A stretch of 38,203 nucleotides of DNA from Candidatus Aquivivens invisus (GCA_001804415.1 MHGA01000007.1:1-38203), one strand, 5' to 3'. Shown: positions 3,055 to 31,117, counted from the first letter of the stretch. Notes: a model not told the origin generated them from the letters alone. Translations and numbers: made by a program.

Positions 3055-3539
3055 AACGAGTCCATAGTCCACAGTCCATAGTCCACAGTTCTGCTTTAGA
3101 ACATTCCGCATTCCGCATTCCGCATTCCGCATTCAGACGGGGGTTTACCCTCGTGGAAATCATGCTCGTCGTCATCATCATCGGGGTGCTGGCGGGTATG
3201 GTGCTGCCGCGGTTTGCGGGGCGGACCGAGCAAGCCAAGATGGCGCGGGCACGAGTCGACGTCGCCGCCATCGGGACGGCCCTTGATCTCCACGAGCTGG
3301 ATCTGGGGAGCTATCCGAAGAAGCTTGAGGAGCTCGTGTTGGCCAGCGCGCCCTCAGGGGTTGACGAATCGGTGTGGCATGGGCCGTATCTCAAGAAGGG
3401 GTTGCCGAAAGACCCGTGGGGGCGGGACTACCAGTACGAATGCCTCGGCGAGCCGTGCGCCGACTACAAGCTGTTCTCCATCGGCCCGAACGGTACGAAT
3501 GACGGCGGCAAGGGGGATGACGTCACGAGCTGGGAGTGA
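3051..3539 (+). CDS. gspG: Major pseudopilin GspG
   Basis: Main subunit of the T2SS pseudopilus. The prepilin peptidase site is RRG|FTLVE, with Gly31 at -1 and Glu at +5, followed by the hydrophobic N-terminal helix. The C-terminal half carries the GspG hallmarks LPKDPWGRDYQY, the YKLFSIGPNG turn and the acidic calcium-loop region before the final W-E. The mature part is ordinary. The leader is not: it is about 31 residues instead of a short basic stretch, and it is built from two 7-bp tandem arrays (3059-3093 and 3103-3130). The start is fixed by the ATGA overlap with gspF. Confidence 0.95.
   Translation: MKRVHSPQSIVHSSALEHSAFRIPHSAFRRGFTLVEIMLVVIIIGVLAGMVLPRFAGRTEQAKMARARVDVAAIGTALDLHELDLGSYPKKLEELVLASAPSGVDESVWHGPYLKKGLPKDPWGRDYQYECLGEPCADYKLFSIGPNGTNDGGKGDDVTSWE
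3059..3093. repeat. Heptamer array AGTCCAT/AGTCCAC in the gspG leader
   Basis: Units read AGTCCAT, AGTCCAC, AGTCCAT, AGTCCAC, then degenerate AGTTCTG. They encode part of the GspG prepilin leader (HSPQSIVHSS). The unit beginning at 3066 is in the phase where a T in its last position would give an in-frame TAG; it has C. Confidence 0.9.
3103..3136. repeat. Heptamer array ATTCCGC in the gspG leader
   Basis: Four perfect ATTCCGC units (3103-3130) and a partial fifth. They encode SAFRIPHSAFR just before the prepilin cleavage site. The reverse-complement family (AATGCGG, i.e. CCGCATT) reappears between mraZ and rsmH. Confidence 0.9.
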
Positions 3540-4116
3540 ATCAGAACAGAGACGGGGACTCAAGACGCAAGACTCACGACTCAAGCGAAAGAATCGTTCA
3601 AGTCTCGGGTCTCGGGTCTCGGGTCTTGGGTCTACGCAGGGGTTCACGCTCATTGAGTTGGTGGTGGTGGCAGCGGTCTTGGCCGTCGTGATGGTGTCGG
3701 CGGTTCCCCATCTCCAGCGGGGCTGGGTGAGCGCTCAGACGGAACGCACCGCCTTTCAAGTCGCGCAGAGCTTGCGCGCGGCGAGGACCCTGGCCATCAC
3801 CGGCACCCGTATGGTGGATTGGATATGGGATGGCGAAGGACGGCGGGTCTGCGTGGGTTCCTCCGAGGCGGTCGACTGCGCGGCAGCGGATCCGCATGAT
3901 CGTCTGGCGGGACCGCGTCGCGTGCCCTCGCCGCTTCGATTGGCGGTCACCCACGACGGGCAGGCGGTGAGCCGCGTACGATTTTTTCCCGATGGCACCA
4001 GCCAGTCTTCGACGGTGGTCGTCAACGACGCCGCCTCACCCCGCTACACGATTGTCATCGATGGATCAACCAGCCAGGTGGCGGTCCACGCCGCCACGCT
4101 CGCCTCGCCACGATAA
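3517..4116 (+). CDS. gspH: Minor pseudopilin GspH-like
   Basis: Type IV prepilin-like protein: cleavage site TQG|FTLIELVVVAAVLAVV with Glu at +5, then a GspH-type globular domain (QVAQSLRAARTLAITG...). In this frame no ATG, GTG or TTG lies between the end of gspG and the motif. The nearest start is ATG 3517, inside gspG, which gives a 42-residue leader. The GTG at 3536, which would make the usual GTGA coupling to the gspG stop, is out of frame with the pilin. The leader is made of two heptamer arrays, so start and frame may vary between cells. The product from 3517 is 199 aa. Family call is good; the start is uncertain. Confidence 0.8.
   Translation: MTSRAGSESEQRRGLKTQDSRLKRKNRSSLGSRVSGLGSTQGFTLIELVVVAAVLAVVMVSAVPHLQRGWVSAQTERTAFQVAQSLRAARTLAITGTRMVDWIWDGEGRRVCVGSSEAVDCAAADPHDRLAGPRRVPSPLRLAVTHDGQAVSRVRFFPDGTSQSSTVVVNDAASPRYTIVIDGSTSQVAVHAATLASPR
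3557..3584. repeat. Heptamer array GACTCAA in the gspH leader
   Basis: Units GACTCAA, GACGCAA, GACTCAC, GACTCAA. This is roughly the reverse complement of the GGTCTTG/GGTCTCG array 16 nt downstream, so the two could pair. Confidence 0.85.
3601..3635. repeat. Heptamer array GGTCTCG in the gspH leader
   Basis: Units AGTCTCG, GGTCTCG, GGTCTCG, GGTCTTG, GGTCTAC. They encode the last part of the GspH prepilin leader, ending a few codons before the cleavage site. Confidence 0.9.
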
Positions 4117-4525
4117 CCGCGCAGCACGTCCCTGCGGGGCTTGCGGCTTTCTGCTCATTGAAGCCACGCTAACGGTGACCGTGCTGGCCGTCGGCCTGGT
4201 CTTTATTGCCAGGGGTCTTGGCAACAGCTTGAAAACCCTCTCGGCGTTGGAACAGTCAGAGACCTTGCGGCAGCTGGCCGAATCCCAATTCGCAGAGCTC
4301 GAAACCCACGCGCAGCAAGGCCAGCCGCTTGCGCGAACCGGCTCCTGCGCGCCGCCGCAGGCGGGGTGCCGATGGACGCTGCAAGATCTGGAAGTCCCTT
4401 CACCCGATATCCCCGATGACATCCAGCCGTCCGTTCGGCTGGTCACCTTGACCGTCACCGGCGAGCGGCCCGGAAGTCCCAAGATGCGCCTCCAGACGAT
4501 CTGGCCGGCGGAATGGCTCCAATGA
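4061..4525 (+). CDS. gspI: Minor pseudopilin GspI-like
   Basis: Small prepilin-like protein (154 aa) with cleavage site GACG|FLLIEATLTVTVLAVG and Glu at +5. A coiled N-terminal helix follows (EQSETLRQLAESQFAELE), then a short beta domain. The position between gspH and gspJ and the size match the GspI tip pseudopilin. The ATG at 4061 lies inside the gspH 3' end (56-nt overlap) and gives a 29-residue basic leader. No heptamer array is obvious in this leader, unlike its neighbours. The assignment as GspI rather than a generic pilin rests on gene order. Confidence 0.8.
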   Translation: MDQPARWRSTPPRSPRHDNRAARPCGACGFLLIEATLTVTVLAVGLVFIARGLGNSLKTLSALEQSETLRQLAESQFAELETHAQQGQPLARTGSCAPPQAGCRWTLQDLEVPSPDIPDDIQPSVRLVTLTVTGERPGSPKMRLQTIWPAEWLQ

Positions 4526-5232
4526 CAGACCTCAGACCTCAGACCACAGACCTCAGACCACAGACGACAGACTGGACATCACTGAAGTCTGGAGTCTGGA
4601 GTCTGAAGTCTGAGCGAGGCTTGACGTTCATCGAGTTGCTGATGGCGGTGACGGTATTCGCAACACTCCTGGTGGGACTCTCCTCGCACGTGCGCGGCAG
4701 CGTGGTGGCGTGGCGGCGCGTGACCTCCACGACCGAGCGGCTCCAGCGCGTGCGCGTGGCGTTGGAGCGGCTCACCGCCGATGTGACGAATGCCTTCGTC
4801 TTCGATCCGAGCCAGACCTGGCAACCCGGCCACCAGTTTGCGTCGGATCGGTTCTCCTGTTACACCATTCAACCATCCTCGGCAGCCCAGGGGTCGGACA
4901 CCAATCGGGTGGTCTTCGTCACCTACACCATGGAGCCAAGCGAATCGCCGATGGTGTTGACGCGAACCGTGCGCAGCGTTCGCGAAGCCTCCGACGGAGT
5001 GCCCGGGGAGTCGCACCCACTGCTCGACGAGGTTGAGGGGTTCGCGCTGCGCTACGGCGTGTGGGATGCGACGATGAACCGTCTCGTCTGGATCGATCGG
5101 TGGGATGATCAAGGGCAGGTCCCCGGAGTCGTTCGGGTCGCGTTGACGATGAAGGCGTCGGCAGGGGCGGCTGTTGAGCAGACCATGCTGATTCCGACAG
5201 GAAGCCTGTCGCCGCCTGCTGTCGCGCCATGA
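4522..5232 (+). CDS. gspJ: Minor pseudopilin GspJ-like
   Basis: Prepilin-like protein of 236 aa. Cleavage site SERG|LTFIELLMAVTVFATLL with Glu at +5; the larger beta-rich C-terminal domain fits GspJ, a subunit of the I-J-K tip complex. The ATG at 4522 overlaps the gspI stop as ATGA; another in-frame ATG lies 9 nt upstream. The 33-residue leader is entirely repeat-encoded: seven CAGACCT-like heptamers, then four AGTCTGG-like heptamers that are their reverse complement, giving the peptide repeat TDLRPQT. Confidence 0.85.
   Translation: MTDLRPQTTDLRPQTTDWTSLKSGVWSLKSERGLTFIELLMAVTVFATLLVGLSSHVRGSVVAWRRVTSTTERLQRVRVALERLTADVTNAFVFDPSQTWQPGHQFASDRFSCYTIQPSSAAQGSDTNRVVFVTYTMEPSESPMVLTRTVRSVREASDGVPGESHPLLDEVEGFALRYGVWDATMNRLVWIDRWDDQGQVPGVVRVALTMKASAGAAVEQTMLIPTGSLSPPAVAP
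4526..4574. repeat. Heptamer array CAGACCT (7 units) in the gspJ leader
   Basis: Units: CAGACCT, CAGACCT, CAGACCA, CAGACCT, CAGACCA, CAGACGA, CAGACTG. The array begins immediately after the gspI stop codon. It is the longest array in the window. Confidence 0.95.
4584..4611. repeat. Heptamer array GRAGTCT, inverse partner of the CAGACCT array
   Basis: Units GAAGTCT, GGAGTCT, GGAGTCT, GAAGTCT. The reverse complement reads CAGACTCCAGACTC, the same family as 4526-4574 on the opposite strand. With a 9-nt gap the two arrays can form a long imperfect hairpin in the gspJ mRNA close to its start codon. Confidence 0.9.
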
Positions 5233-8244: not shown

Positions 8245-8478
8245 ATGTCAGTATTACAACTCTTTATGATAAAAGATGTTGCAAGATTAAGCGGCCACTC
8301 AATCTATACGCTGAAGTTTTATCTCAACCTTGGGCTCATTAAAGAGGTAGGAAGGAGTCCGGAAACGCGGTTTCGGTACTTTGACGATTCAACCCTTGAG
8401 CGCCTTTCGAGGATTCGCGCCTTCCGTAAGCAGGGAAAGAGCTTAGCCGAGATCCAATCTCTAGTTGCTGACTGCTGA
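8245..8478 (+). CDS. Small MerR-family DNA-binding protein
   Basis: The 77-aa product is little more than the MerR winged helix-turn-helix: MIKDVARLSGHSIYTLKFYLNLGLI, then RFRYFDDSTLERLSRI, then RAFRKQGKSLAEIQSL. There is no effector domain and no dimerising coiled coil of normal length. The gene and its upstream region are clearly AT-richer than the T2SS genes on either side, which suggests separate ancestry. Its last codons and stop (VADC-stop) are supplied by the heptamer array at 8461-8495. It may control the downstream exeA-gspC-gspD block or only itself. Confidence 0.8.
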   Translation: MSVLQLFMIKDVARLSGHSIYTLKFYLNLGLIKEVGRSPETRFRYFDDSTLERLSRIRAFRKQGKSLAEIQSLVADC

Positions 8479-8495
8479 CTGCTGACTGCTAGTTG
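8461..8495. repeat. Heptamer array CTGACTG at the merR end and gspA start
   Basis: Units CTAGTTG, CTGACTG, CTGACTG, CTGACTG, CTAGTTG, followed by CAATG, whose ATG is the gspA start. The array supplies the stop codon of one gene and fills the ribosome-binding region of the next; no Shine-Dalgarno sequence is visible. Confidence 0.9.
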
Positions 8496-9957: not shown

Positions 9958-11829
9958 ATGACGGTGTCCGGTTCGCGGTGTCCGGTGAACAGGGGAGTGT
10001 TCACCCTGCTTACTGCTTACTGCTTACTGCTTACTGCTGTGTCAGCCGTGTGGGCCCAGACCGCCGAAACCGGTCCGCCGGAGAGCTTCGTGACGGGACA
10101 GCGGATCTCGCTCGATCTGAAGGGTGTGGACATTCTCGATGTGTTGAAGCTGCTGTCCCAGAAGAGCGGGCTGAATTTCGTGGCGGGGCGCAACGTGACG
10201 GGCCGGGTGACGATCTTCGCCAAGGACGTGGACGTGTGGAAGGCGTTTGAGCAGATCGTGGATGCCAACGAGCTGGCCTATGAGCATCGGGGTGACATCG
10301 TGAACGTGATGACCGCCAGGGACTATGAATTGCTCCATGGGGTGCGGTTCCAGGAGCGCACGGTGAGCCGGGTGATTCCCCTGAAATTCGCCAAAGCCAT
10401 CCAGGTGTCCACCGCCCTCAATCAGGTGAAATCCAACATCGGGAGGGTCGTGGTTGATGAAGCCTCCAACACGATCATCCTGACCGACGCCCCGATGCGG
10501 CTCAACGAGATGGCCGCGTTGACGGGAACGCTCGACCGGCCCACCGAGACGCGCATCTACACGCTCCACTACGCCGAGGCGGAGAAACTGAAGGAGAAGC
10601 TCCAGGAACTGCTGACCCCCGGGTTGGGCACGTTTAGTTTCGACCCCCGGACCAACAAGGTGGTGATCTCCGACCTGAAAGATCTCATGCCGAAATTCGA
10701 CCGCATCATCCGCGCGCTGGATGAGCAGGACGGCGAGGTGCTGATTGACGCGAAGCTCGTGAAGGTCAAGCTGACCGACAGCTACAACCTCGGCATCGAC
10801 TGGAAGGAGGTCTTCGCCGGCATCGACTCGCAAGGCCGCCTGAGCTTCGATTCGGTCGACGGCGACGTCGTGGGATCCGGCGCGACGGGGGCGGCGCTGA
10901 AACTGCTCTCCGCGCCTAGCGGCGACAGCCAGGTGATCCTCGAGGCGTTGCAGAAGTACGGCAAGACCGAGACGATCTCCAACCCGCGCATCGCGGTGAT
11001 GAACAATCAGGAGGCCAAGATCCTCATCGGAACTAAGGAAGCGGTGATCTCGGTCACCACGACCATCCCGGCCAGCGGCTCGACCGTCAGCTCGCCCGAG
11101 ATCACGTACGTCGACGTGGGGACGAAGCTGTTTGTGACGCCCAGCATCAAATCCGACGGGCACGTGAAGTTGAAGATCCGTCCCGAGGTGAGCACGGCCG
11201 ATGTGCAGACCTTCAGCACCTCCGCCGATGTCAAAAACCGCATCCCGATCGTGACGACCACCGAGGCGGAGACCAACGTGATCGTCAGGAGCGGCACCAC
11301 GGTGATCATCGGCGGGCTCATCGACAGCACCGTCAAGCGGAATCAAAGCCAGCTCCCCTTCTTGGGGAACCTCCCGGTGCTGGGCATGCCGTTCCGCAGC
11401 CGGGCGGATTCCAACGAGAAAACCGAACTCGTGGTCTTCTTGACTCCGCAGATCATCTCCTCGACCGGGGAGCCCGTCACGCAGTTTCAGGAAGGCGCCT
11501 CAGTGGAAGCCATCGGCTCGGTGGGCGAGGGACCGCCGGTTCCGCTGAGTTATCAGGCGCTGGTGCGGGCGCTGGTCAGCAGCCAGCTCACCCGGCAACT
11601 TCGCGAGCGGTCGGTCCAGACCGGATCCGTGGAGTTGTCGTTCGTGCTCGGCAAGGATGGGCGCGTGGTGGGACGTCCGGCGATTGCGAGTCCGGAAGGG
11701 GAGCCGTTCATTCAGGCGGCCCAGGAGGCGCTCAAGGCGCTCTCTCCCCTGCCGTCGTTTCCCCAAGGGGCCTGGGCGGATCAGGTGCGATTTCAGGTGG
11801 TGGTGGATTATCGTCCGGACGGGTTTTAA
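9958..11829 (+). CDS. gspD: Secretin GspD/PilQ with a C-terminal TonB-like domain
   Basis: Outer-membrane secretin channel. The start is ATG 9958, 5 nt after AGGAGG. The signal peptide core (LLTAYCLLLTA, ending before VWAQT) is encoded by four CTGCTTA heptamers. An N0-like domain (ISLDLKGVDILDVLKLLSQKS) and further N domains are followed by the secretin core, which ends near residue 500 (TELVVFLTPQII). The remaining about 120 residues are unusual. After a linker, GSVELSFVLGKDGRVV ... PFIQAAQEALKAL ... DQVRFQVVVDY has the layout of a TonB C-terminal domain. Secretin call is certain; the TonB-like call is by pattern only. Confidence 0.92.
   Translation: MTVSGSRCPVNRGVFTLLTAYCLLLTAVSAVWAQTAETGPPESFVTGQRISLDLKGVDILDVLKLLSQKSGLNFVAGRNVTGRVTIFAKDVDVWKAFEQIVDANELAYEHRGDIVNVMTARDYELLHGVRFQERTVSRVIPLKFAKAIQVSTALNQVKSNIGRVVVDEASNTIILTDAPMRLNEMAALTGTLDRPTETRIYTLHYAEAEKLKEKLQELLTPGLGTFSFDPRTNKVVISDLKDLMPKFDRIIRALDEQDGEVLIDAKLVKVKLTDSYNLGIDWKEVFAGIDSQGRLSFDSVDGDVVGSGATGAALKLLSAPSGDSQVILEALQKYGKTETISNPRIAVMNNQEAKILIGTKEAVISVTTTIPASGSTVSSPEITYVDVGTKLFVTPSIKSDGHVKLKIRPEVSTADVQTFSTSADVKNRIPIVTTTEAETNVIVRSGTTVIIGGLIDSTVKRNQSQLPFLGNLPVLGMPFRSRADSNEKTELVVFLTPQIISSTGEPVTQFQEGASVEAIGSVGEGPPVPLSYQALVRALVSSQLTRQLRERSVQTGSVELSFVLGKDGRVVGRPAIASPEGEPFIQAAQEALKALSPLPSFPQGAWADQVRFQVVVDYRPDGF
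9964..9991. repeat. Heptamer array GTGTCCG at the gspD start
   Basis: Units GTGTCCG, GTTCGCG, GTGTCCG, GTGAACA, beginning 4 nt after the start ATG. Together with the next repeat it builds the whole N-region of the signal peptide. A perfect inverted repeat, GGTGAACA (9984-9991) and TGTTCACC (9998-10005), lies between the two arrays. Confidence 0.7.
10006..10040. repeat. Heptamer array CTGCTTA encoding the GspD signal-peptide core
   Basis: Four perfect CTGCTTA units and a fifth, CTGCTGT. Read in any frame the repeat has no stop and gives mainly Leu, Thr, Ala, Tyr and Cys, so copy changes would alter the frame but keep the segment hydrophobic. Confidence 0.95.
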
Positions 11830-24592: not shown

Positions 24593-25144
24593 ATGCGCCT
24601 TAAACGACTTGAGTGGTTTCAAGGAATCTTAGCGAGTGTCCTTTTCTGGTCACTGGTCACTAGTTCACTAGTCACTCTGTGTGGGTGCGAGGCGCTGCAG
24701 AAGAAATTTGTCCGCAAACGCAAGACGCCCCTCGCGCGTCCGACGCCGATCATCCACTTCCAGGATTACACCCGTGCGATCACCCCGCTCGACCGGTATC
24801 GCAAGCACTACGTCATGTTTGACTACTGGAACGCCGAGCTGCTGGAGACCTTGGGGGATCGCGACTTCAGCCTCAAGCGCCTGCGCAAAGACTCCGCGGA
24901 GGCCCTTCAGGAATTGCGCGTGCTTCAAGGGCTCCTGCAAGAAGATCTCGCGGCCGAGGTGGATCCGCTCATCGAGGAGCGCGCCTCGCTCGACCGGCAG
25001 ATCCACGAACGTCTCCTCATGCCCTCCGATGCCGGAGCTATTCGCCAGCGGCTGGAGGTTCAGAGCCGTCAGATCCATCGCGTCTTGTCCTGGCGAGAGG
25101 TCGAAGACCGGTTAAAAATCATCACGGATGCAACCTCAGATTGA
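24593..25144 (+). CDS. Putative lipoprotein of unknown function
   Basis: A 183-aa protein not recognised by family. A basic start (MRLKRLEWFQ) and a hydrophobic stretch lead to a lipobox-like LCGC (Cys at about residue 32). The mature part is charged and helical (LGDRDFSLKRLRKDSAEALQEL), probably a coiled coil. The signal core (WSLVTSSLVTL) is encoded by a heptamer array. GTG 24575 is an alternative start, coupled to the ligA stop. It overlaps xerD by 17 nt. Confidence 0.65.
   Translation: MRLKRLEWFQGILASVLFWSLVTSSLVTLCGCEALQKKFVRKRKTPLARPTPIIHFQDYTRAITPLDRYRKHYVMFDYWNAELLETLGDRDFSLKRLRKDSAEALQELRVLQGLLQEDLAAEVDPLIEERASLDRQIHERLLMPSDAGAIRQRLEVQSRQIHRVLSWREVEDRLKIITDATSD
24647..24675. repeat. 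Heptamer array TGGTCAC encoding a lipoprotein signal core
   Basis: Units TGGTCAC, TGGTCAC, TAGTTCAC (8 nt, one base longer), TAGTCAC. The one-base insertion shows that units can change length as well as sequence. Confidence 0.85.
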
Positions 25145-26045
25145 GAGCTTCCTGGCCCACCTGCAGCTTGAGCGGGGTGTCAGCCCCACGACGAGCGCCA
25201 GCTACCGTGATGACCTGCGGTTGTTCGCCCGGTTCTGCCGGGAGCGCGGCATCGCCCAGCCGAGCCGAGTCCGGCCGATGACCATTCGGGCGTTTCTCCA
25301 ATGGTTGGTGGAGTCCAAGCGCTCGGCATCCACCGCGGCGAGGAAGCTGGCGTGCCTGAAAGGGTTCTTTCGATTCCTGGTTGCCCAAGGGCTCATGCTG
25401 CGCAACCCGACCGAATTCATTCAAACGCCACGGTTGTGGCGTCGGCTTCCACAGACGCTTGACGAATCGGAAGTCGAGCGGATGCTGGCTGCGATTCCTA
25501 AGACGAGCCAGGGGATCCGTGCCAACGAGGCGGCGCTCCTGCGAGTGCGCGACATGGCCCTGTTCGAATTGCTGTATGGAGCAGGTTTACGCGTGTCCGA
25601 GGCGGCTTCGCTGGAACTCAACTCTGTCAATCTGGACGTGGGATTTCTTCGCTGTCTGGGCAAGGGCAGCAAAGAGCGCGTGGTGCCGGTCGGCACCTTC
25701 GCCGCGCAGGCCATTCGCCGATATCTGGATGAGGCGAGACCGAAACTGCTCCGGAAGGGATCGACGACCTCAACCCTGTTTGTGAACCGCGGGGGTTCCC
25801 GCATGACGCGGCAGCGCATCTGGCAGTTGGTGCGCCGCTACGCGATGGCGAGTCACGTCACGAAGCGAATCGGGCCTCATACGTTTCGCCACTCGTTCGC
25901 CACCCACTTGCTCTCACGGGGAGCCGACCTGCGCACGGTCCAAGAGCTGCTGGGGCACGCGAACATCTCGACGACCCAGCGCTACACCCAGGTGGATCGT
26001 GCGAGGCTCAAGGCTGTCCACGAGCAGTACCATCCAAGACCATAA
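25128..26045 (+). CDS. xerD: Tyrosine recombinase XerD/XerC
   Basis: Site-specific recombinase that resolves chromosome dimers at dif. A SAM-like N-terminal core-binding domain (IESFLAHLQLERGVSPTTSASYRDDL) precedes the catalytic domain with R (GAGLRVSE), K (LGKGSKER), HxxR (HTFRHSFATHL), H (LLGHANISTT) and Tyr (QRYTQVD). 305 aa. The N-terminus is closer to XerD than XerC. It lies in a housekeeping neighbourhood and is not part of a mobile element that I can see. Confidence 0.92.
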   Translation: MQPQIESFLAHLQLERGVSPTTSASYRDDLRLFARFCRERGIAQPSRVRPMTIRAFLQWLVESKRSASTAARKLACLKGFFRFLVAQGLMLRNPTEFIQTPRLWRRLPQTLDESEVERMLAAIPKTSQGIRANEAALLRVRDMALFELLYGAGLRVSEAASLELNSVNLDVGFLRCLGKGSKERVVPVGTFAAQAIRRYLDEARPKLLRKGSTTSTLFVNRGGSRMTRQRIWQLVRRYAMASHVTKRIGPHTFRHSFATHLLSRGADLRTVQELLGHANISTTQRYTQVDRARLKAVHEQYHPRP

Positions 26046-26046
26046 C

Positions 26047-26112
26047 GAGTGACCAGCCCGCCCCGGCTCTCGATCCACTGGGCGGGCCGGGGTGACCAGT
26101 GAGCGGACTGGT
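26047..26112. repeat. AGTGACC heptamer sequence interrupted by the palindromic element
   Basis: The xerD-cca gap reads AGTGACCA, then the 37-nt element, then TGACCAGTGAGCGGACTGG. It belongs to the same GTGACCA family as the two arrays around the lipoprotein start. Confidence 0.75.
26056..26092 (-). mobile_element. 37-nt palindromic element, copy A
   Basis: On the minus strand: left arm CCCCGGCCCGCC, 13-nt centre, right arm GCCGGGGCGGGC. Both arms are identical to copy B at 29855-29891 while the centres differ completely. TGACCA stands directly on both sides (26050-26055 and 26093-26098), and the repeat is 7 bp if the element's outer G is counted. It looks like a small non-autonomous insertion; the duplication could also be two array units. 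Confidence 0.7.
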
Positions 26113-26130
26113 GGCGAGACAACAACGACC

Positions 26131-26913
26131 ATGGGTCGACAGCGACGGATCGTGAAGATTCCTGAGGCGGTGAGGCCGGGGTTGGAAACCATCGGCCGAA
26201 TCGCGGACGCGCACGAGCTGAAGGCCTATGCGGTAGGCGGCTGCGTGCGGGATTGGATGTGGGGAATCGTTTCAACCGTTGATGTCGATGTCACCGTTGA
26301 GGGGAATGGCATGGCCTTGGCTCAGCGCCTCGGTGAAACGTTTGGGGTGCCGGTTCAGTCGCATCCTCAGTTCGGCACGGCAACCCTGGAACTGCCATGC
26401 GGAGCTCCGCGGCGCGCGATGAGAAGGCGCCTTGACATCGCGACGTGCCGGAAGGAGACGTATCGTGAGCCGGCGGCGTACCCTCGCGTGTCAGCCGGGA
26501 CGTTGCGTGATGATCTGCGGCGCCGTGACTTTACGATCAACGCGATGGCCATGGCGCTGAGTCCCGATCAGTTTGGGAGGCTGGCGGATCCCTTTGATGG
26601 CTTGCGCGATCTGAAGAAACGGCACTTGCGGATCTTGCATCCCGACAGCTTTGTCGATGATCCGAGTCGGATCCTGCGCGCGGCGCGCTTCGCGGCGCGA
26701 TTCCACCTGCGCCTGGAACGGCACACCGAGCGCCAGATGTCCCGCGCCCTGGCGAGTGGACTGCTGGGATGCCTCAATCGCGGGCGGGTGCGCAAAGAAT
26801 TTGAACGGATGGCTGCCGAACCTCAGCCGCTCGACGCGCTGGCGTGCTTGGGGAGATGGTTAGTCGAAGCCTCCGCCACCACACGACATGATCGTCGGCG
26901 TGTTGCACGTTGA
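26131..26913 (+). CDS. Short CCA-adding enzyme/poly(A) polymerase-like nucleotidyltransferase
   Basis: Class II tRNA nucleotidyltransferase head and neck: YAVGGCVRDWMWG, the catalytic DVDVTVEG, RRDFTINAMAMAL, then DDPSRILRAARFAARFH and a GRVRKEFERM helix. It ends at 260 aa, where family members usually continue with a body and tail of 100-200 more residues. The last codons overlap ylxP by 26 nt. Either a minimal enzyme or a 3' truncation created by the ylxP junction. The tRNA-Pro here needs CCA addition. Confidence 0.8.
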   Translation: MGRQRRIVKIPEAVRPGLETIGRIADAHELKAYAVGGCVRDWMWGIVSTVDVDVTVEGNGMALAQRLGETFGVPVQSHPQFGTATLELPCGAPRRAMRRRLDIATCRKETYREPAAYPRVSAGTLRDDLRRRDFTINAMAMALSPDQFGRLADPFDGLRDLKKRHLRILHPDSFVDDPSRILRAARFAARFHLRLERHTERQMSRALASGLLGCLNRGRVRKEFERMAAEPQPLDALACLGRWLVEASATTRHDRRRVAR

Positions 26914-27169
26914 CTTGCATCTGCCGTTCGCCCAGTCCCTGAAGGACAAACGGTCGGTGCTGAAAAGCCTTAAGGATCAACTCCACAACAGATTCCATAT
27001 CGCCGTCGCGGAGGACGACGCGAACGTCAAATGGCAGCGCGCGGCACTTGGCATTGCGGCGCTCGGGGGTGATCGAGTGACGGTGGAGCGCTGTTTTCAA
27101 CAGATCGTTGAGTGGCTGGACACCAATCGGTTCATCGAGCTCATTCGGGTAGAGCAGGAGTGGCGGTGA
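26888..27169 (+). CDS. ylxP: DUF503 family protein YlxP
   Basis: A 93-aa protein starting MIVGVLHVDLHLPFAQSLKDKRSVLKS, the unmistakable DUF503 N-terminus, followed by VAEDDANVKWQRAALGIA. Function is poorly defined; it is usually linked to ribosome assembly by its position before rbfA. Here too rbfA begins one base after the stop, but infB, often upstream, is absent. Confidence 0.92.
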   Translation: MIVGVLHVDLHLPFAQSLKDKRSVLKSLKDQLHNRFHIAVAEDDANVKWQRAALGIAALGGDRVTVERCFQQIVEWLDTNRFIELIRVEQEWR

Positions 27170-27170
27170 G

Positions 27171-27515
27171 ATGTTGGGGACGAGGAAGGAACGGCTCAAT
27201 CAGCAGTTGCAGCGGGAAATCGCGGTGATTCTCCAACGAGAGCTCAAGGATCCGGAGATCGGATTCGTGACGATCACGCGGGTGGAGCTCTCCAATGACC
27301 TCGCGTACGCGAAGGTGGGGTACAGTTGTTTGGGCGGGCCGGACGAACGGCATCGGTCTCAACAGGCGCTCGATCGATCCAGCGGCTATGTGCGCAATCT
27401 GGTCAGAAAGCGGCTCCATCTGAAAATCATCCCGCAGCTGCTCTTTCGATTTGACGAATCCATTGAAGGCTCAATCGACATGGCTAAGCAACTCGACCAA
27501 CTCAATCAGACATGA
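27171..27515 (+). CDS. rbfA: Ribosome-binding factor A
   Basis: A 114-aa KH-like protein for 30S maturation. The start RKERLNQQLQREIAVILQREL is followed by GFVTITRVELSNDLAYAKV, the RNLVRKRLHLKIIPQL block and FRFDESIEGS. Its stop overlaps truB as ATGA. Confidence 0.95.
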   Translation: MLGTRKERLNQQLQREIAVILQRELKDPEIGFVTITRVELSNDLAYAKVGYSCLGGPDERHRSQQALDRSSGYVRNLVRKRLHLKIIPQLLFRFDESIEGSIDMAKQLDQLNQT

Positions 27516-28237
27516 TGCTGGAAGGGGTCCTGGTCGTCAACAAGCCTCAAGGACCGACGTCGCATGACGTGGTCGACCATCTGCGTCGGCGCTTGGGGAT
27601 CCGCCGCATCGGGCATGCGGGTACGCTGGATCCCATCGCGGAAGGCGTCCTTGTCACCCTGGTGGGGCGTGCGACGGAATACCAGCGGGCCGTCCAAGCG
27701 TATCCCAAACAATACGAGACGGCGATTCAACTCGGCCTCCAGACCGACTCTGGGGACGCGTGGGGAAAGCCCTTGCAGACGGCCGAGGTCCCTCCGTTGG
27801 ATCGAGGCCGCGTCGCAGCACTCCTCACCTCACTGACTGGACCTCTGCTTCAAACGCCCCCGCGGTTCAGCGCCGTGAAGGTGCAGGGCCGGCCGATGTA
27901 TTGGTGGACCCGTCGAGGGGTGGCCAAGACCGTCGCGCCTCGTCAAGTGGAAATCTTCCAGATGGCGCTCATGGACGTGGGCCCGCAGACCATCCGCTGC
28001 CGGATCGATTGCTCCTCAGGGACGTATATCCGCACGCTGGCCGAGACCATCGCGCAGCGCCTTGGGACGCTCGGCCACGTCGCGCAGTTGACCCGATTGG
28101 CGGTTGGCCCGTGGACGATCGAGACCGCCCATCCGCTCTCGTGGATCCTCAGCGCCGGCCTCGACGAACTTCGCAACGCCCTTCAGCCTTCCTCGACGGT
28201 TGCTTCCATCGCCCATGCCCGTCCTCATCGGCTGTAA
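27512..28237 (+). CDS. truB: tRNA pseudouridine-55 synthase
   Basis: Makes pseudouridine 55 in the T loop. LVVNKPQGPTSHDVV is followed by the catalytic-Asp motif GHAGTLDPIAEGVL, then TDSGDAWG, PRFSAVKVQG and SSGTYIRTLAE. 241 aa: the catalytic core with a short C-terminus and no clear PUA domain. ATG 27512 overlaps the rbfA stop; another ATG follows directly. Confidence 0.95.
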   Translation: MMLEGVLVVNKPQGPTSHDVVDHLRRRLGIRRIGHAGTLDPIAEGVLVTLVGRATEYQRAVQAYPKQYETAIQLGLQTDSGDAWGKPLQTAEVPPLDRGRVAALLTSLTGPLLQTPPRFSAVKVQGRPMYWWTRRGVAKTVAPRQVEIFQMALMDVGPQTIRCRIDCSSGTYIRTLAETIAQRLGTLGHVAQLTRLAVGPWTIETAHPLSWILSAGLDELRNALQPSSTVASIAHARPHRL

Positions 28238-29144
28238 CCGTCTGACGACCATCCCTCCTCGGGCTGTGGTCGCCATTGGGATGTTCGACGGCGTCCATCG
28301 AGCCCATCAACAACTCATCCGCACCACGGTGCGGTTGGCTCAACGGGTGCGGGGCACCAGCGTGGCGGTGACGTTTGATCCAGATCCCCAAACGGTCCTG
28401 GACCCGCACCATGCCCAACGTCCCTTGATGCCGCTTCAACGGCGACTTGAGCTGATCGAATCATGCGGGGCGCGGCTCATTTGGGTGATTCGATTCACGC
28501 CCGCGTTCTCGCGCATGAGCCCCGAAGGCTTTGTTCGGTCGATGCTGTGGAGGCGGCTTCGAGCCCGATGGATTGTCGTCGGGAGCGCGTTTGCTTTTGG
28601 CAAGGATCGCCGCGGAGATCTGGCGTTGTTGCGCCGCCTCGGAGCGGTCTGCGGGATGCGGATCACCGCCCTGCCGGCGGTGCGCGCCGGCGGGATGCCG
28701 ATCTCCAGCTCCCGTATTCGGACGCTGGTGCAACGAGGCGCCCTCGCTGAGGCTCGGCAGTTGCTCGGTCGCGACGCAGAGCTGAGCGGCGTCGTCGTGC
28801 GTGGGGCGGGTCGTGCGACGCAATTGGGATTCCCGACGGCCAACATCCAACTGGCACCAACGCTCCGACCGCCTCGGGGAGTTTATCACGTGGGGGTGGT
28901 GGTCGGACGACGACGCTACGACGGACTCATGAATCTCGGTGTGCGTCCGACGTTCCTGCCAACCTCGCGGTCTGCGGGGCTCGTGTGCGAAGTGCACCTG
29001 CCGACCTTCCAGGGAACGCTGTACGGTCAATCGGTCAGGATCGAGCTCCATCGCTATCTCAGGGACGAACGGCGCTTTCCGAATCCGCAGGCGCTTGTCC
29101 GGCAGATCCGACGAGACCTTCGCCGACTCACCCGTCTTCCTTGA
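28215..29144 (+). CDS. ribF: Bifunctional riboflavin kinase / FAD synthetase
   Basis: Converts riboflavin to FMN and FAD. The N-terminal FAD synthetase part has GMFDGVHRAHQQLI, VTFDPDPQ and ISSSRIRTLV. The C-terminal flavokinase part has GRATQLGFPTANIQL, GVYHVGVV and MNLGVRPTF. 309 aa. It overlaps truB by 23 nt in another frame. This completes the flavin genes of the window, although it sits 8 kb away from the other rib genes. Confidence 0.95.
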   Translation: MPVLIGCNRLTTIPPRAVVAIGMFDGVHRAHQQLIRTTVRLAQRVRGTSVAVTFDPDPQTVLDPHHAQRPLMPLQRRLELIESCGARLIWVIRFTPAFSRMSPEGFVRSMLWRRLRARWIVVGSAFAFGKDRRGDLALLRRLGAVCGMRITALPAVRAGGMPISSSRIRTLVQRGALAEARQLLGRDAELSGVVVRGAGRATQLGFPTANIQLAPTLRPPRGVYHVGVVVGRRRYDGLMNLGVRPTFLPTSRSAGLVCEVHLPTFQGTLYGQSVRIELHRYLRDERRFPNPQALVRQIRRDLRRLTRLP

Positions 29145-29236
29145 GCCCTTCCTCTTCCTTTCCTCGTCGATCCCCACGCGTTGTCGTAACGACTTCATTT
29201 CGCTTAATCTTGCGTAAAAATTTTTGCCGCCTCCTC

Positions 29237-29265
29237 TTGACAGGTGTGGAGGGAACAGGTATAGT
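29237..29265 (+). promoter_or_regulatory. Sigma70 promoter of the mraZ division cluster
   Basis: TTGACA (29237-29242), exactly 17 nt, TATAGT (29260-29265): the best consensus promoter in the window. The 164-bp gap it lies in (29145-29308) also has a small GTCGT-A-ACGAC inverted repeat at 29183-29193 and otherwise nothing I recognise. Confidence 0.8.
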
Positions 29266-29278
29266 TTGAGCGTTTCTG

Positions 29279-29303
29279 TGGGAAGAAGTGGGAGGAAGTG
29301 GGG
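29279..29303 (+). promoter_or_regulatory. Three MraZ boxes
   Basis: TGGGA (29279), TGGGA (29289) and TGGGG (29299), each 5 nt with 5-nt spacers. This is the TGGGN repeat pattern known to bind MraZ. The third box lies 5 nt before the start codon and the AGGA at 29293-29296 is the ribosome-binding site, so MraZ binding would cover transcription start to translation start. Confidence 0.8.
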
Positions 29304-29308
29304 CAACA

Positions 29309-29746
29309 ATGTTTTACGGCGAATACAGCCACACCATCGACCGAAAAGGTCGCCTCATCATCCCCGCGAAATTCCGGCAGACCCTCCGCGCGAACGGCAT
29401 CGAGACGATCTTTGTGACCAGGGGGCTCGATAGCTGTCTCTTCGTGTTTCCCGAACCGGAATGGCGGACGGTTGAGGCTCGATTCAAACAAATCCCCTTC
29501 ACGAAAATGGAAGGCCGGAAATTCAACCGGCTGTTCTTTTCGGGGGCCGTGGAAGTCGATCTCGATCGGTTGGGACGGCTCCTGATTCCCAAACATCTCA
29601 AAGAGTTCGCCCACATCAAACAGGATCTCGTGATCATCGGCGTGTCGACGCGCATCGAAATCTGGGCGAAAGAGCAGTGGCAGGAGTTCTCCCAAACGTC
29701 CCAGCAGCAATTTGAAGACGTCGCCGAGAAGATCCTCTTGGAGTAA
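29309..29746 (+). CDS. mraZ: Transcriptional regulator MraZ
   Basis: A 145-aa protein with two SpoVT-AbrB-type swapped-hairpin domains. It starts MFYGEYSHTIDRKGRLIIPAKF, and the second half has EVDLDRLGRLLIPKHLKEF. A conserved repressor of the division cluster and of itself; here its target boxes are intact directly upstream. I chose ATG 29309 over an in-frame GTG at 29288 by family N-terminus. Confidence 0.96.
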   Translation: MFYGEYSHTIDRKGRLIIPAKFRQTLRANGIETIFVTRGLDSCLFVFPEPEWRTVEARFKQIPFTKMEGRKFNRLFFSGAVEVDLDRLGRLLIPKHLKEFAHIKQDLVIIGVSTRIEIWAKEQWQEFSQTSQQQFEDVAEKILLE

Positions 29747-29758
29747 ATGGCACCACGA

Positions 29759-29793
29759 AATGCGGCATGCGGAGTGCGGAATGCGGAATGAAA
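29759..29793. repeat. Heptamer array AATGCGG between mraZ and rsmH
   Basis: Units AATGCGG, CATGCGG, AGTGCGG, AATGCGG, AATGAAA. It starts 12 nt after the mraZ stop. It is the inverse complement of the ATTCCGC/ATTCCGA array 50 nt downstream, so the rsmH leader could form a hairpin. ATG 29747, just after the mraZ stop, opens a 14-codon frame through the array that ends at TGA inside it. Confidence 0.85.
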
Positions 29794-29819
29794 TCGGTGC
29801 GGCAAGAGGAGTGTTCACG

Positions 29820-30791
29820 GTGACTGACGAGACTTCGAAGGAGCATTCCGAATTCCCCGGCCCGCCGAGCGACGCACAGGCCGGGGCGGGCCGAATTCCG
29901 AATTCCGCATTGCGGCATACGCCGGTGTTGCTCCGGGAAGTTCTGGAGTGGCTGGCCCCGAAGCCGAACATGACCATTGTGGACTGCACGATGGGGGGCG
30001 GGGGACACAGCGCAGCGATTGTGCCGCGCCTCATGCCGGACGGGCGGTTGATCGCGATGGACTGCGATGAGCAGGCGCTCGAGGCGGCAAAAGCCCGGCT
30101 CGTCGAGTTCGCGCCCAAGGTGGCATACGTCCATCGCAATTTCAGGGATTTACCCACGGTGCTCGCGCAACTCGGCTGCGCGCGAATCGGCGGCCTCCTT
30201 GCGGATCTTGGCATGTCGAGCCTCCAGCTCGATGATCCGCAGCGCGGATTCAGCTTTTCGAGGGAGGGCCCGCTCGATATGCGCCTGGATCTCCGCCAGC
30301 CGATGACCGCCACCTCGCTGATTCGCCAAAGCTCCCAGCGACAGCTCGTCGACCTGTTCCGAGACTATGGGGAAGAGCGTTGGGCCGAGCGGATCGCGCG
30401 GCGCATTGTGGAGACGCGCAAGCGCCAGCCGCTCGACACGACCTTGCAGCTTGCGCGCCTGGTTGAGGAGGCGGTTCCTCGCGGGGCGTCGAGGCGGATC
30501 CATCCGGCGACCCGCATCTTTCAGGCGCTTCGCATCGCCGTCAACGATGAGCTGGGCGCCTTGCGGGAATTGCTGAGCGTCCTTCCGGATATCCTCGCTC
30601 CAGGCGGCAGGGCAGCGATCCTGACGTTTCACTCCCTGGAAGATCGCCTGGTGAAGCAGGCCTTTCGGCAGGGGGCTCAAGCCGGACGCTTGCGGGTGTT
30701 GACGAAGAAACCGGTGCGTCCTTCTGCGGAGGAAGCGGCCGCCAACCCCCGCAGCCGATCCGCTAAACTGCGCGCGGCGGAACGACCATGA
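29820..30791 (+). CDS. rsmH: 16S rRNA m4C1402 methyltransferase RsmH (MraW)
   Basis: SAM-dependent methyltransferase of the ribosomal P site. HTPVLLREVLEWL is followed by the SAM site VDCTMGGGGHS, LLADLGMSSLQLDDPQRGFSF, RIFQALRIAVNDEL and FHSLEDRLVKQAF. The body begins near 29917. Upstream the frame stays open through repeat sequence. I placed the start at GTG 29820 because AGAGGAG (29805-29811) is ideally spaced; ATG 29760 is an alternative. The first about 32 residues are then repeat-encoded, including 13 from the palindromic element. 323 aa; ATGA overlap with ftsL. Confidence 0.88.
   Translation: MTDETSKEHSEFPGPPSDAQAGAGRIPNSALRHTPVLLREVLEWLAPKPNMTIVDCTMGGGGHSAAIVPRLMPDGRLIAMDCDEQALEAAKARLVEFAPKVAYVHRNFRDLPTVLAQLGCARIGGLLADLGMSSLQLDDPQRGFSFSREGPLDMRLDLRQPMTATSLIRQSSQRQLVDLFRDYGEERWAERIARRIVETRKRQPLDTTLQLARLVEEAVPRGASRRIHPATRIFQALRIAVNDELGALRELLSVLPDILAPGGRAAILTFHSLEDRLVKQAFRQGAQAGRLRVLTKKPVRPSAEEAAANPRSRSAKLRAAERP
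29845..29915. repeat. ATTCCGA/ATTCCGC heptamer array in the rsmH 5' end, interrupted by the element
   Basis: ATTCCGA (29845), then ATT and the 37-nt element, then ATTCCGA (29895), ATTCCGC (29902) and ATTGCGG (29909). The units keep the gspG-leader heptamer family. Confidence 0.85.
29855..29891 (+). mobile_element. 37-nt palindromic element, copy B
   Basis: Left arm CCCCGGCCCGCC (29855-29866), 13-nt centre, right arm GCCGGGGCGGGC (29880-29891). CGAATT stands directly on both sides (29849-29854 and 29892-29897). Read in the rsmH frame it encodes PGPPSDAQAGAGR, similar to the GspE insertion, which suggests a tolerated reading frame. Confidence 0.75.
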
Positions 30792-31117
30792 ATTTCAGCA
30801 ATCAGCAATCAGCAATCAGCAATCAGCAATGGGGTGGTGGGTGGGCGATTCTGCTTGGGTTGTTGGGTGTGACGGGCTTCGTGAAGGTCGCCGCTGCCAC
30901 CATGGTGTGGCGGTCGGCCTACGCCGCAGGGCGGCAGGCGGTCCAGATCCACAGTGTCGAAAACGACACGCAGTGGCTGCAAACGGATGTCGTGGCCTTG
31001 CAGGCCCCGCGGCATCTTGCGAAGGTTATGGCGAACGAACGAAGCCCCTTTACGGCACGGGTGGAGCTCCCCGCGGCGCTGGGGCACACGCAAGTAGCGC
31101 AGGCTGCGGATGATTAA
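30788..31117 (+). CDS. ftsL: FtsL-like small bitopic division protein
   Basis: Called mainly by place (between rsmH and ftsI) and shape: 109 aa with a short cytoplasmic N-terminus, one membrane helix (about 18-40, WAILLGLLGVTGFVKVAAAT), then an amphipathic helical stretch. The sequence itself is poorly conserved, as usual for FtsL. The cytoplasmic tail (SNQQSAISNQQ) is encoded by five CAGCAAT heptamers. It overlaps ftsI by 8 nt. Confidence 0.7.
   Translation: MNFSNQQSAISNQQWGGGWAILLGLLGVTGFVKVAAATMVWRSAYAAGRQAVQIHSVENDTQWLQTDVVALQAPRHLAKVMANERSPFTARVELPAALGHTQVAQAADD
30796..30830. repeat. Heptamer array CAGCAAT (5 units) in ftsL
   Basis: Five perfect units starting 8 nt after the start ATG, giving a 7-residue peptide repeat. 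It is the most uniform array in the window, so probably recent. Confidence 0.95.

What the first reader, a model, noticed from the sequence alone, without database searches (positions are those of the whole stretch)
26056..29891. Two copies of a 37-nt palindromic element with identical arms and unrelated 13-nt centres
Copy A (26056-26092, minus) and copy B (29855-29891, plus) share 24 of 24 arm bases (CCCCGGCCCGCC and GCCGGGGCGGGC), while the 13-nt centres have no clear similarity. Both sit inside heptamer arrays and have a 6-7 bp direct repeat on each side. Constant arms around a variable centre of constant length resemble a cassette or a REP/RPE-like element.
Basis: seen in the sequence. Interest (0 to 1): 0.85.

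Follow-up and report, generated by a model that had tools for sequence, protein, structure and literature searches.

The report
Tiny mobile hairpin in Omnitrophota genomes
The two matching sequences are copies of a roughly 33-letter hairpin that has spread through one family of uncultured Omnitrophota bacteria, landing in short tandem repeats and, without breaking the reading frame, inside essential genes, which puts it among the smallest mobile DNA elements known.

Summary
The window is from an Omnitrophota genome (G000). CCCCGGCCCGCC-N-GCCGGGGCGGGC occurs six times exactly in G000 and, allowing 3 mismatches at N10, in 20 of 27 genomes of its family, up to 22 copies per genome. The reversed control gives about none. 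Centres are 10, 13 or 16 nt (7 in one variant), so the net insertion is 30, 33, 36 or 39 nt, always a multiple of three. Orthologues show the empty sites: tsaE and cysS carry an exact 11-codon insert in some genera and nothing in others, including nested and tandem copies. Copies also lie in frame in recG, leuS, dxs and dapF. About 21% sit at heptamer-array unit boundaries, against 0.5% of matched control sites. Looser searches show a 7-bp stem, CCCCGNC/GNCGGGG, whose covarying pair (G-C, C-G, A-T) supports a hairpin, followed by a CRGG foot. Centres are copied with the element, so it is not a cassette. The RAYT idea is not supported (no Y1 transposase in G000), and no reverse transcriptase is found in element-bearing genomes. 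Best reading: a non-autonomous, SDR-like miniature mobile hairpin inserting at YC|R. The enzyme is unknown.

The parts
26056..26092 (-). Copy A (N13, centre CAGTGGATCGAGA) between a tyrosine-recombinase gene (25128-26045) and a PolyA_pol/CCA-type nucleotidyltransferase gene; inferred net insert 26056-26091
   Evidence: the syntenic junction in G001, the closest relative found, and in most other family genomes with the junction lacks it
26049..26055 (-). heptamer TGGTCAC on the 3' side of copy A (minus-strand reading)
   Evidence: sequence
26092..26098 (-). heptamer TGGTCAC on the 5' side of copy A; its last C is the first C of the element
   Evidence: sequence
29855..29891 (+). Copy B (N13, centre GAGCGACGCACAG) just upstream of, or in the in-frame N-terminal extension of, rsmH; inferred net insert 29856-29891 (36 nt)
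   Evidence: relatives whose rsmH start region was read lack it
29849..29855 (+). heptamer CGAATTC, left of copy B
   Evidence: sequence
29892..29911 (+). heptamer array CGAATTC CGAATTC CGCATT, right of copy B
   Evidence: sequence
29820..30791 (+). rsmH (mraW) open frame from GTG; copy B would encode PGPPSDAQAGAG in it (a later TTG start would leave copy B non-coding)

Best explanation
Copies A and B are members of a non-autonomous, very small mobile element (net 27-42 nt, usually 33) of one Omnitrophota family. As a single strand (DNA or RNA) it folds into a hairpin with a conserved 7-bp base, CCCCGNC/GNCGGGG, a variable loop and a conserved 3' foot, CRGGY. An enzyme acting in trans is thought to recognise stem and foot and to join the element after a pyrimidine-C and before a purine (YC|R), with no target duplication longer than one base. 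Heptamer arrays, whose units carry this YC|R step, are preferred landing places. The arms stay constant because mobility needs them. The loop is copied with the element and drifts. Loop length is kept at 1 mod 3, so the net insert is a multiple of three and copies are tolerated inside genes as short, stop-free peptides such as PGPPxxxAGAG. Shown: copies, empty sites, nesting, target step, frame rule, stem covariation at one pair. Inferred: active mobility, strand and nucleic acid used, the enzyme.
For: Six exact copies in the genome and copies in 20 of 27 family genomes, control about nil. Empty-site proof: 19 of 23 tsaE orthologues read have no insert at the codon where G003 and G026 have +11 aa PGPPxxxAGAG, G016 a nested inverted copy, and G019 nested plus tandem copies; cysS GEH|K has +33 nt in G016, G009 and G018 and +30 nt in G001. 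Copies A and B are absent from the relatives' syntenic sites that were read. In-frame copies in recG, leuS, dxs, dapF, a Hel308-like helicase and AMMECR1. 130 of 138 distinct matches to a length-free pattern have total length 1 mod 3. Target: position -1 is a pyrimidine in 77%, +1 a purine in 71%. Heptamer abutment in 29 of 138 copies against 0.53% of control YC|R sites. L6:R2 pairs GC 88, CG 25, AT 5, GT 7, TG 1, against 12 non-pairs, in a search that left both positions free.
Against: No transposase or reverse transcriptase was tied to the element, so no mechanism of movement is shown. Everything is comparative, from draft metagenome-assembled genomes; no strain pair differing by one fresh insertion was seen. 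The same-site copies in tsaE and cysS could be ancient insertions kept by descent rather than repeated events. Apart from L6:R2, covariation is weak, and RNA folding prefers the simple register with mismatches in many copies. The two window copies fold only about 1.3 sd better than shuffles.
Confidence: 0.72

Rival explanations
1. A dispersed binding site for a chromosome-organising or regulatory protein (like matS, KOPS or parS): a dyad-like site with fixed half-sites and a free spacer, kept at each place by selection for binding.
For: Arms nearly invariant while the centre varies; the dyad-symmetric base preference of the N10 centre fits a two-fold protein-DNA complex. Between G003 and G026 tsaE, third codon positions differ at 20 of 38 flank sites and at none in the arms.
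Against: Copies are clean insertions into genes with empty orthologous sites, nest inside one another, keep a 3n length and sit at heptamer unit borders; a binding site explains none of these. Spacer lengths of 7, 10, 13 and 16 would rotate half-sites around the helix.
Confidence: 0.1
2. A REP/BIME-type element moved by a RAYT (Y1 HUH) transposase acting on single-stranded hairpins.
For: Size, hairpin with a conserved foot, insertion beside a short target motif without target duplication; Y1_Tnp proteins occur in 19 of 27 family genomes.
Against: G000 (93% complete) and six other element-bearing genomes have no Y1_Tnp match, while G020 has nine and no element; copies are inside genes, and the foot is not GTAG or CGTC.
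Confidence: 0.08
3. A MITE: the ends of a larger insertion sequence whose transposase moves it in trans.
For: Non-autonomous, dispersed, inverted-repeat arms.
Against: Net length 27-42 nt, no target duplication beyond one base in the empty sites, and no larger element with these ends was noticed in the loci read (not searched systematically).
Confidence: 0.08
4. An RNA-intermediate element spread by reverse splicing and reverse transcription, as was proposed for the cyanobacterial SDRs.
For: Hairpin with covariation, precise insertion, no duplication; close resemblance to SDRs.
Against: No RVT_1 protein in any element-bearing family genome; the only genome with RVT_1 (G012) showed no element. 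Drafts are incomplete, and an unrelated or exogenous reverse transcriptase is not excluded.
Confidence: 0.12

Closest known systems
Small dispersed repeats (SDR) of Nostoc and relatives (Elhai et al. 2008, Genome Res 18:1484)
   Same: Very small dispersed hairpin elements without genes, found inside heptamer tandem repeats and nested in copies of themselves, with compensatory changes in the stem (from my memory of the abstract; the paper is not held). Precise insertion of SDR5 into HIP1 is cited in PMC4390886.
   Different: Different phylum; 27-42 nt rather than 21-27; lengths kept at 3n and copies in frame in many essential genes; GC-rich arms. Sequence relation to SDR families was not tested.
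Rickettsia palindromic elements (RPE)
   Same: Palindromic repeats inserted in frame in unrelated housekeeping genes (PMC10969869).
   Different: RPEs are about 150 bp with a conserved encoded peptide; here about 33 nt, several reading frames and both orientations, and also in heptamer arrays.
Neisseria dRS3 repeats, ATTCCC(N8)GGGAAT
   Same: Constant inverted arms around a variable centre of set length, many copies (PMC3898611).
   Different: dRS3 belong to intergenic mosaics with an 8-nt centre, and one subtype is a phage integration target; unrelated arms, no in-frame gene copies described there.
REP/REPIN with RAYT
   Same: 20-40 nt hairpins dispersed in bacterial genomes.
   Different: No GTAG/CGTC foot, copies inside genes, no link with Y1 transposases.

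Membership tests
SDR (Elhai 2008) | dispersed copies of a very small gene-less repeat | tested here: met
SDR (Elhai 2008) | frequently embedded in heptamer tandem repeats | tested here: met
   29 of 138 copies against 0.53% of control sites
SDR (Elhai 2008) | nested insertions in copies of itself | tested here: met
   tsaE of G016 and G019; L033
SDR (Elhai 2008) | hairpin supported by compensatory changes | tested here: met
   L6:R2; weak elsewhere
SDR (Elhai 2008) | size 21-27 nt, confined to a group of cyanobacteria | tested here: not met
   net 27-42 nt, Omnitrophota
SDR (Elhai 2008) | sequence homology with an SDR family | not tested
   paper and SDR sequences not held
Rickettsia palindromic elements | in-frame insertion into protein genes | tested here: met
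Rickettsia palindromic elements | about 150 bp length | tested here: not met
   net about 33 nt
REP/REPIN with RAYT | associated Y1 (RAYT) transposase | tested here: not met
   absent in G000 and six other carriers
REP/REPIN with RAYT | extragenic location and GTAG/CGTC foot | tested here: not met
MITE | target-site duplication of 2 bp or more | tested here: not met
   empty sites in cysS and tsaE
MITE | parent element with the same ends and a transposase | not tested
   no systematic search for larger elements was run

The most novel reading that the evidence does not exclude
A self-contained class of about 33-nt mobile hairpins that spreads in Omnitrophota with neither a Y1 transposase nor a reverse transcriptase, through an undescribed enzyme, and whose length (3n) and stop-free reading frames have been tuned so that it can live inside essential genes and add peptide loops to proteins.
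Probability: 0.3. Interest if true: 0.85.

Novelty: new variant of a known kind. Interest (0 to 1): 0.62.

Why it matters
Mobile DNA this small was known to me only from cyanobacteria, and how such pieces move is an open question. Here is a second, unrelated lineage with the same habits (heptamer arrays, nesting, precise insertion) plus a clear new one: strict 3n length and in-frame landing in essential genes such as tsaE, cysS, leuS and recG. Dozens of filled and empty sites across about 20 genera make the insertion rules and the search for the enzyme directly testable, and they show a route by which ready-made 10-13-residue loops enter core proteins.

Tried and rejected
Cassette with exchangeable centre: rejected because centres are inherited with the copy. 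RAYT: Y1_Tnp does not track copies. Reverse transcriptase: absent from carriers. Pseudoknot of the two shifted stems: rejected because the two stems would have no linkers (reasoning). Second stem L6-12/R6-12: one compensated variant (L264), but broken in G001, G009 and G018 and by the common L11 C>A change. Heptamer arrays created by the element through a 7-bp duplication: rejected, because most arrays in the window hold no element and gene insertions have no duplication. Phage or viral origin: no exact match in 2.9 million viral contigs. Rfam: no hit at either copy. Exact matches in Streptomyces and other GC-rich genomes have scattered spacers of 8-20 and look like chance. The scan of public genomes returned 100 stretches, so its phylum counts are lower bounds.

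Full report
What was checked. The genome (G000, 1.42 Mb, 46 contigs) holds six exact arm pairs and the reversed control none. With up to three arm mismatches at N10, 20 of 27 family genomes have copies, up to 22 in one genome, against a single control match. Public record titles name the host group as Candidatus Omnitrophota, mostly groundwater genomes. Exact copies are rare outside the family: one genome of another family in the order, and two in other families of the phylum. Matches in Streptomyces and similar GC-rich genomes have scattered spacers and look like chance.

Anatomy. Centre lengths are 10 (most), 13, 16 and, in one variant, 7. A length-free pattern keeping only CCCCGNC...GNCGGGGCNGG gave 138 distinct sequences in the listed rows, of which 130 have total length 1 mod 3 (28, 31, 34, 37, 40, 43); 48 of the 55 that differ from the canonical arms obey the same rule. 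These matches exceed the reversed control several-fold, though some are probably chance. Positions L6 and R2 were left free in that search and covary: GC 88, CG 25, AT 5, GT 7, TG 1, against 12 non-pairs. This supports the hairpin base L1-7/R1-7. The simple register pairs 9 of 12 arm positions and is often the RNA minimum-energy fold, so alternative folds exist. N10 centres follow NNTNRYNANN with nearly mirror-symmetric base frequencies, but pairing inside the centre covaries only weakly.

Insertion. The filled and empty sites are the strongest evidence. In tsaE, most orthologues read REYP|G. G003 and G026 have an extra 11 residues, PGPPxxxAGAG, at that codon; G016 has a second, inverted copy inside the right arm of the first; G019 has that nested pair and a third copy abutting it. 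In cysS, empty GAGCAC|AAG becomes GAGCAC + 33 nt + AA(A/G) in G016, G009 and G018, and + 30 nt in G001, with divergent arms that keep the L1-7/R1-7 stem. Copies also lie in frame in recG, leuS, dxs, dapF (a G000 copy), a Hel308-like helicase and an AMMECR1 domain protein, in both orientations and several frames. The join is after a C preceded by a pyrimidine (77%) and before a purine (71%). No duplication longer than the single shared C is seen.

Heptamer arrays. 29 of 138 copies abut a lag-7 repeat of at least 6 of 7 matches; only 0.53% of control YC|R sites in G000 do, about forty-fold fewer. In the exact array copies the element begins at a unit boundary, because the units carry the YC|R step. 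The window has 11 period-7 arrays against 0-4 runs at other periods, and most hold no element, so the arrays are targets, not products.

The window copies. Copy A lies between a tyrosine recombinase gene and a PolyA_pol-domain gene. In relatives that keep this junction, including G001 where the two genes almost abut, the element is absent. Copy B lies before rsmH, in frame with a GTG start at 29820, though a downstream TTG start is also possible; relatives whose rsmH start could be read lack it (four could not be read by the script).

Why constant arms and a variable centre. Within a genome, 8.5% of centre pairs differ at two positions or fewer, against 0.85% between genomes, and no label shuffle reached this. 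The centre is therefore copied with the element and drifts, while the arms are held. Between G003 and G026 tsaE, third codon positions differ at 20 of 38 flank sites and at none in the arms, which fits either selection on the arms or separate insertions. The arm count is biased towards conservation because copies were found by their arms.

Mechanism. A trans-acting enzyme that recognises a single-stranded hairpin and its foot and joins it at YC|R explains the fixed stem and foot, free loop, precise insertion without duplication, nesting and array preference. This enzyme was not found. Y1_Tnp is missing from G000 and six other carriers while abundant in an element-free genome. RVT_1 is missing from all carriers. 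The 3n rule is inferred to come from selection against frameshifts when copies land in genes; array copies obey it because they derive from the same lineages.

Comparison with the known. The closest kind is the cyanobacterial SDR elements; the original paper is not in the library and its content is cited from memory, except for SDR5 insertion into HIP1 (PMC4390886) and their mention beside REPINs (PMC3116915). RPEs share in-frame gene insertion but are about 150 bp (PMC10969869). Two searches of the paper library for Omnitrophota together with repeat-element terms found no report, and one for palindromic repeats returned two papers not about such an element by title. I file it as a new variant of a known kind: works like SDRs and RPEs, membership in SDR not shown.

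Noticed in passing
window 3059-3085, 3101-3136, 3601-3633, 4525-4613, 8465-8491, 10005-10039, 24646-24664, 29768-29790, 30794-30831: Many short tandem arrays of period exactly 7 with different units, in a 38-kb stretch; other periods give 0-4 runs. What makes heptamer arrays here is unexplained.
   Followed up: partly
window 24646-24664 and 26049-26098: The same heptamer, TGGTCAC, forms an array 1.4 kb away from copy A and also flanks copy A.
   Followed up: no
G018:C19:80064-80093, C24:29772-29801, C32:16615-16644; G002:C4:31055-31084, C24:15594-15623: A related subfamily with a perfect longer hairpin, CCCCGCCAC...GTGGCGGGGCRGG (27-30 nt net), in G018 and G002.
   Followed up: no
L200, L205, L308 (G019 tsaE); L199, L206 (G016 tsaE): The nested pair in tsaE is shared by two genera, while G026, in the same genus as G019, has a single copy with another centre: repeated insertion, precise loss or transfer.
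   Followed up: partly
L035, L070, L094:4440: Some copies sit at the apex of another repeated inverted repeat (CCTTCGACYCNGCT ... AGGGC ... GAGTCGA-like), suggesting layered repeats.
   Followed up: no
L063 and L068: Exact arm pairs in contigs filed as Nitrospirae and Acidobacteriia genomes; mis-binning or transfer not tested.
   Followed up: no
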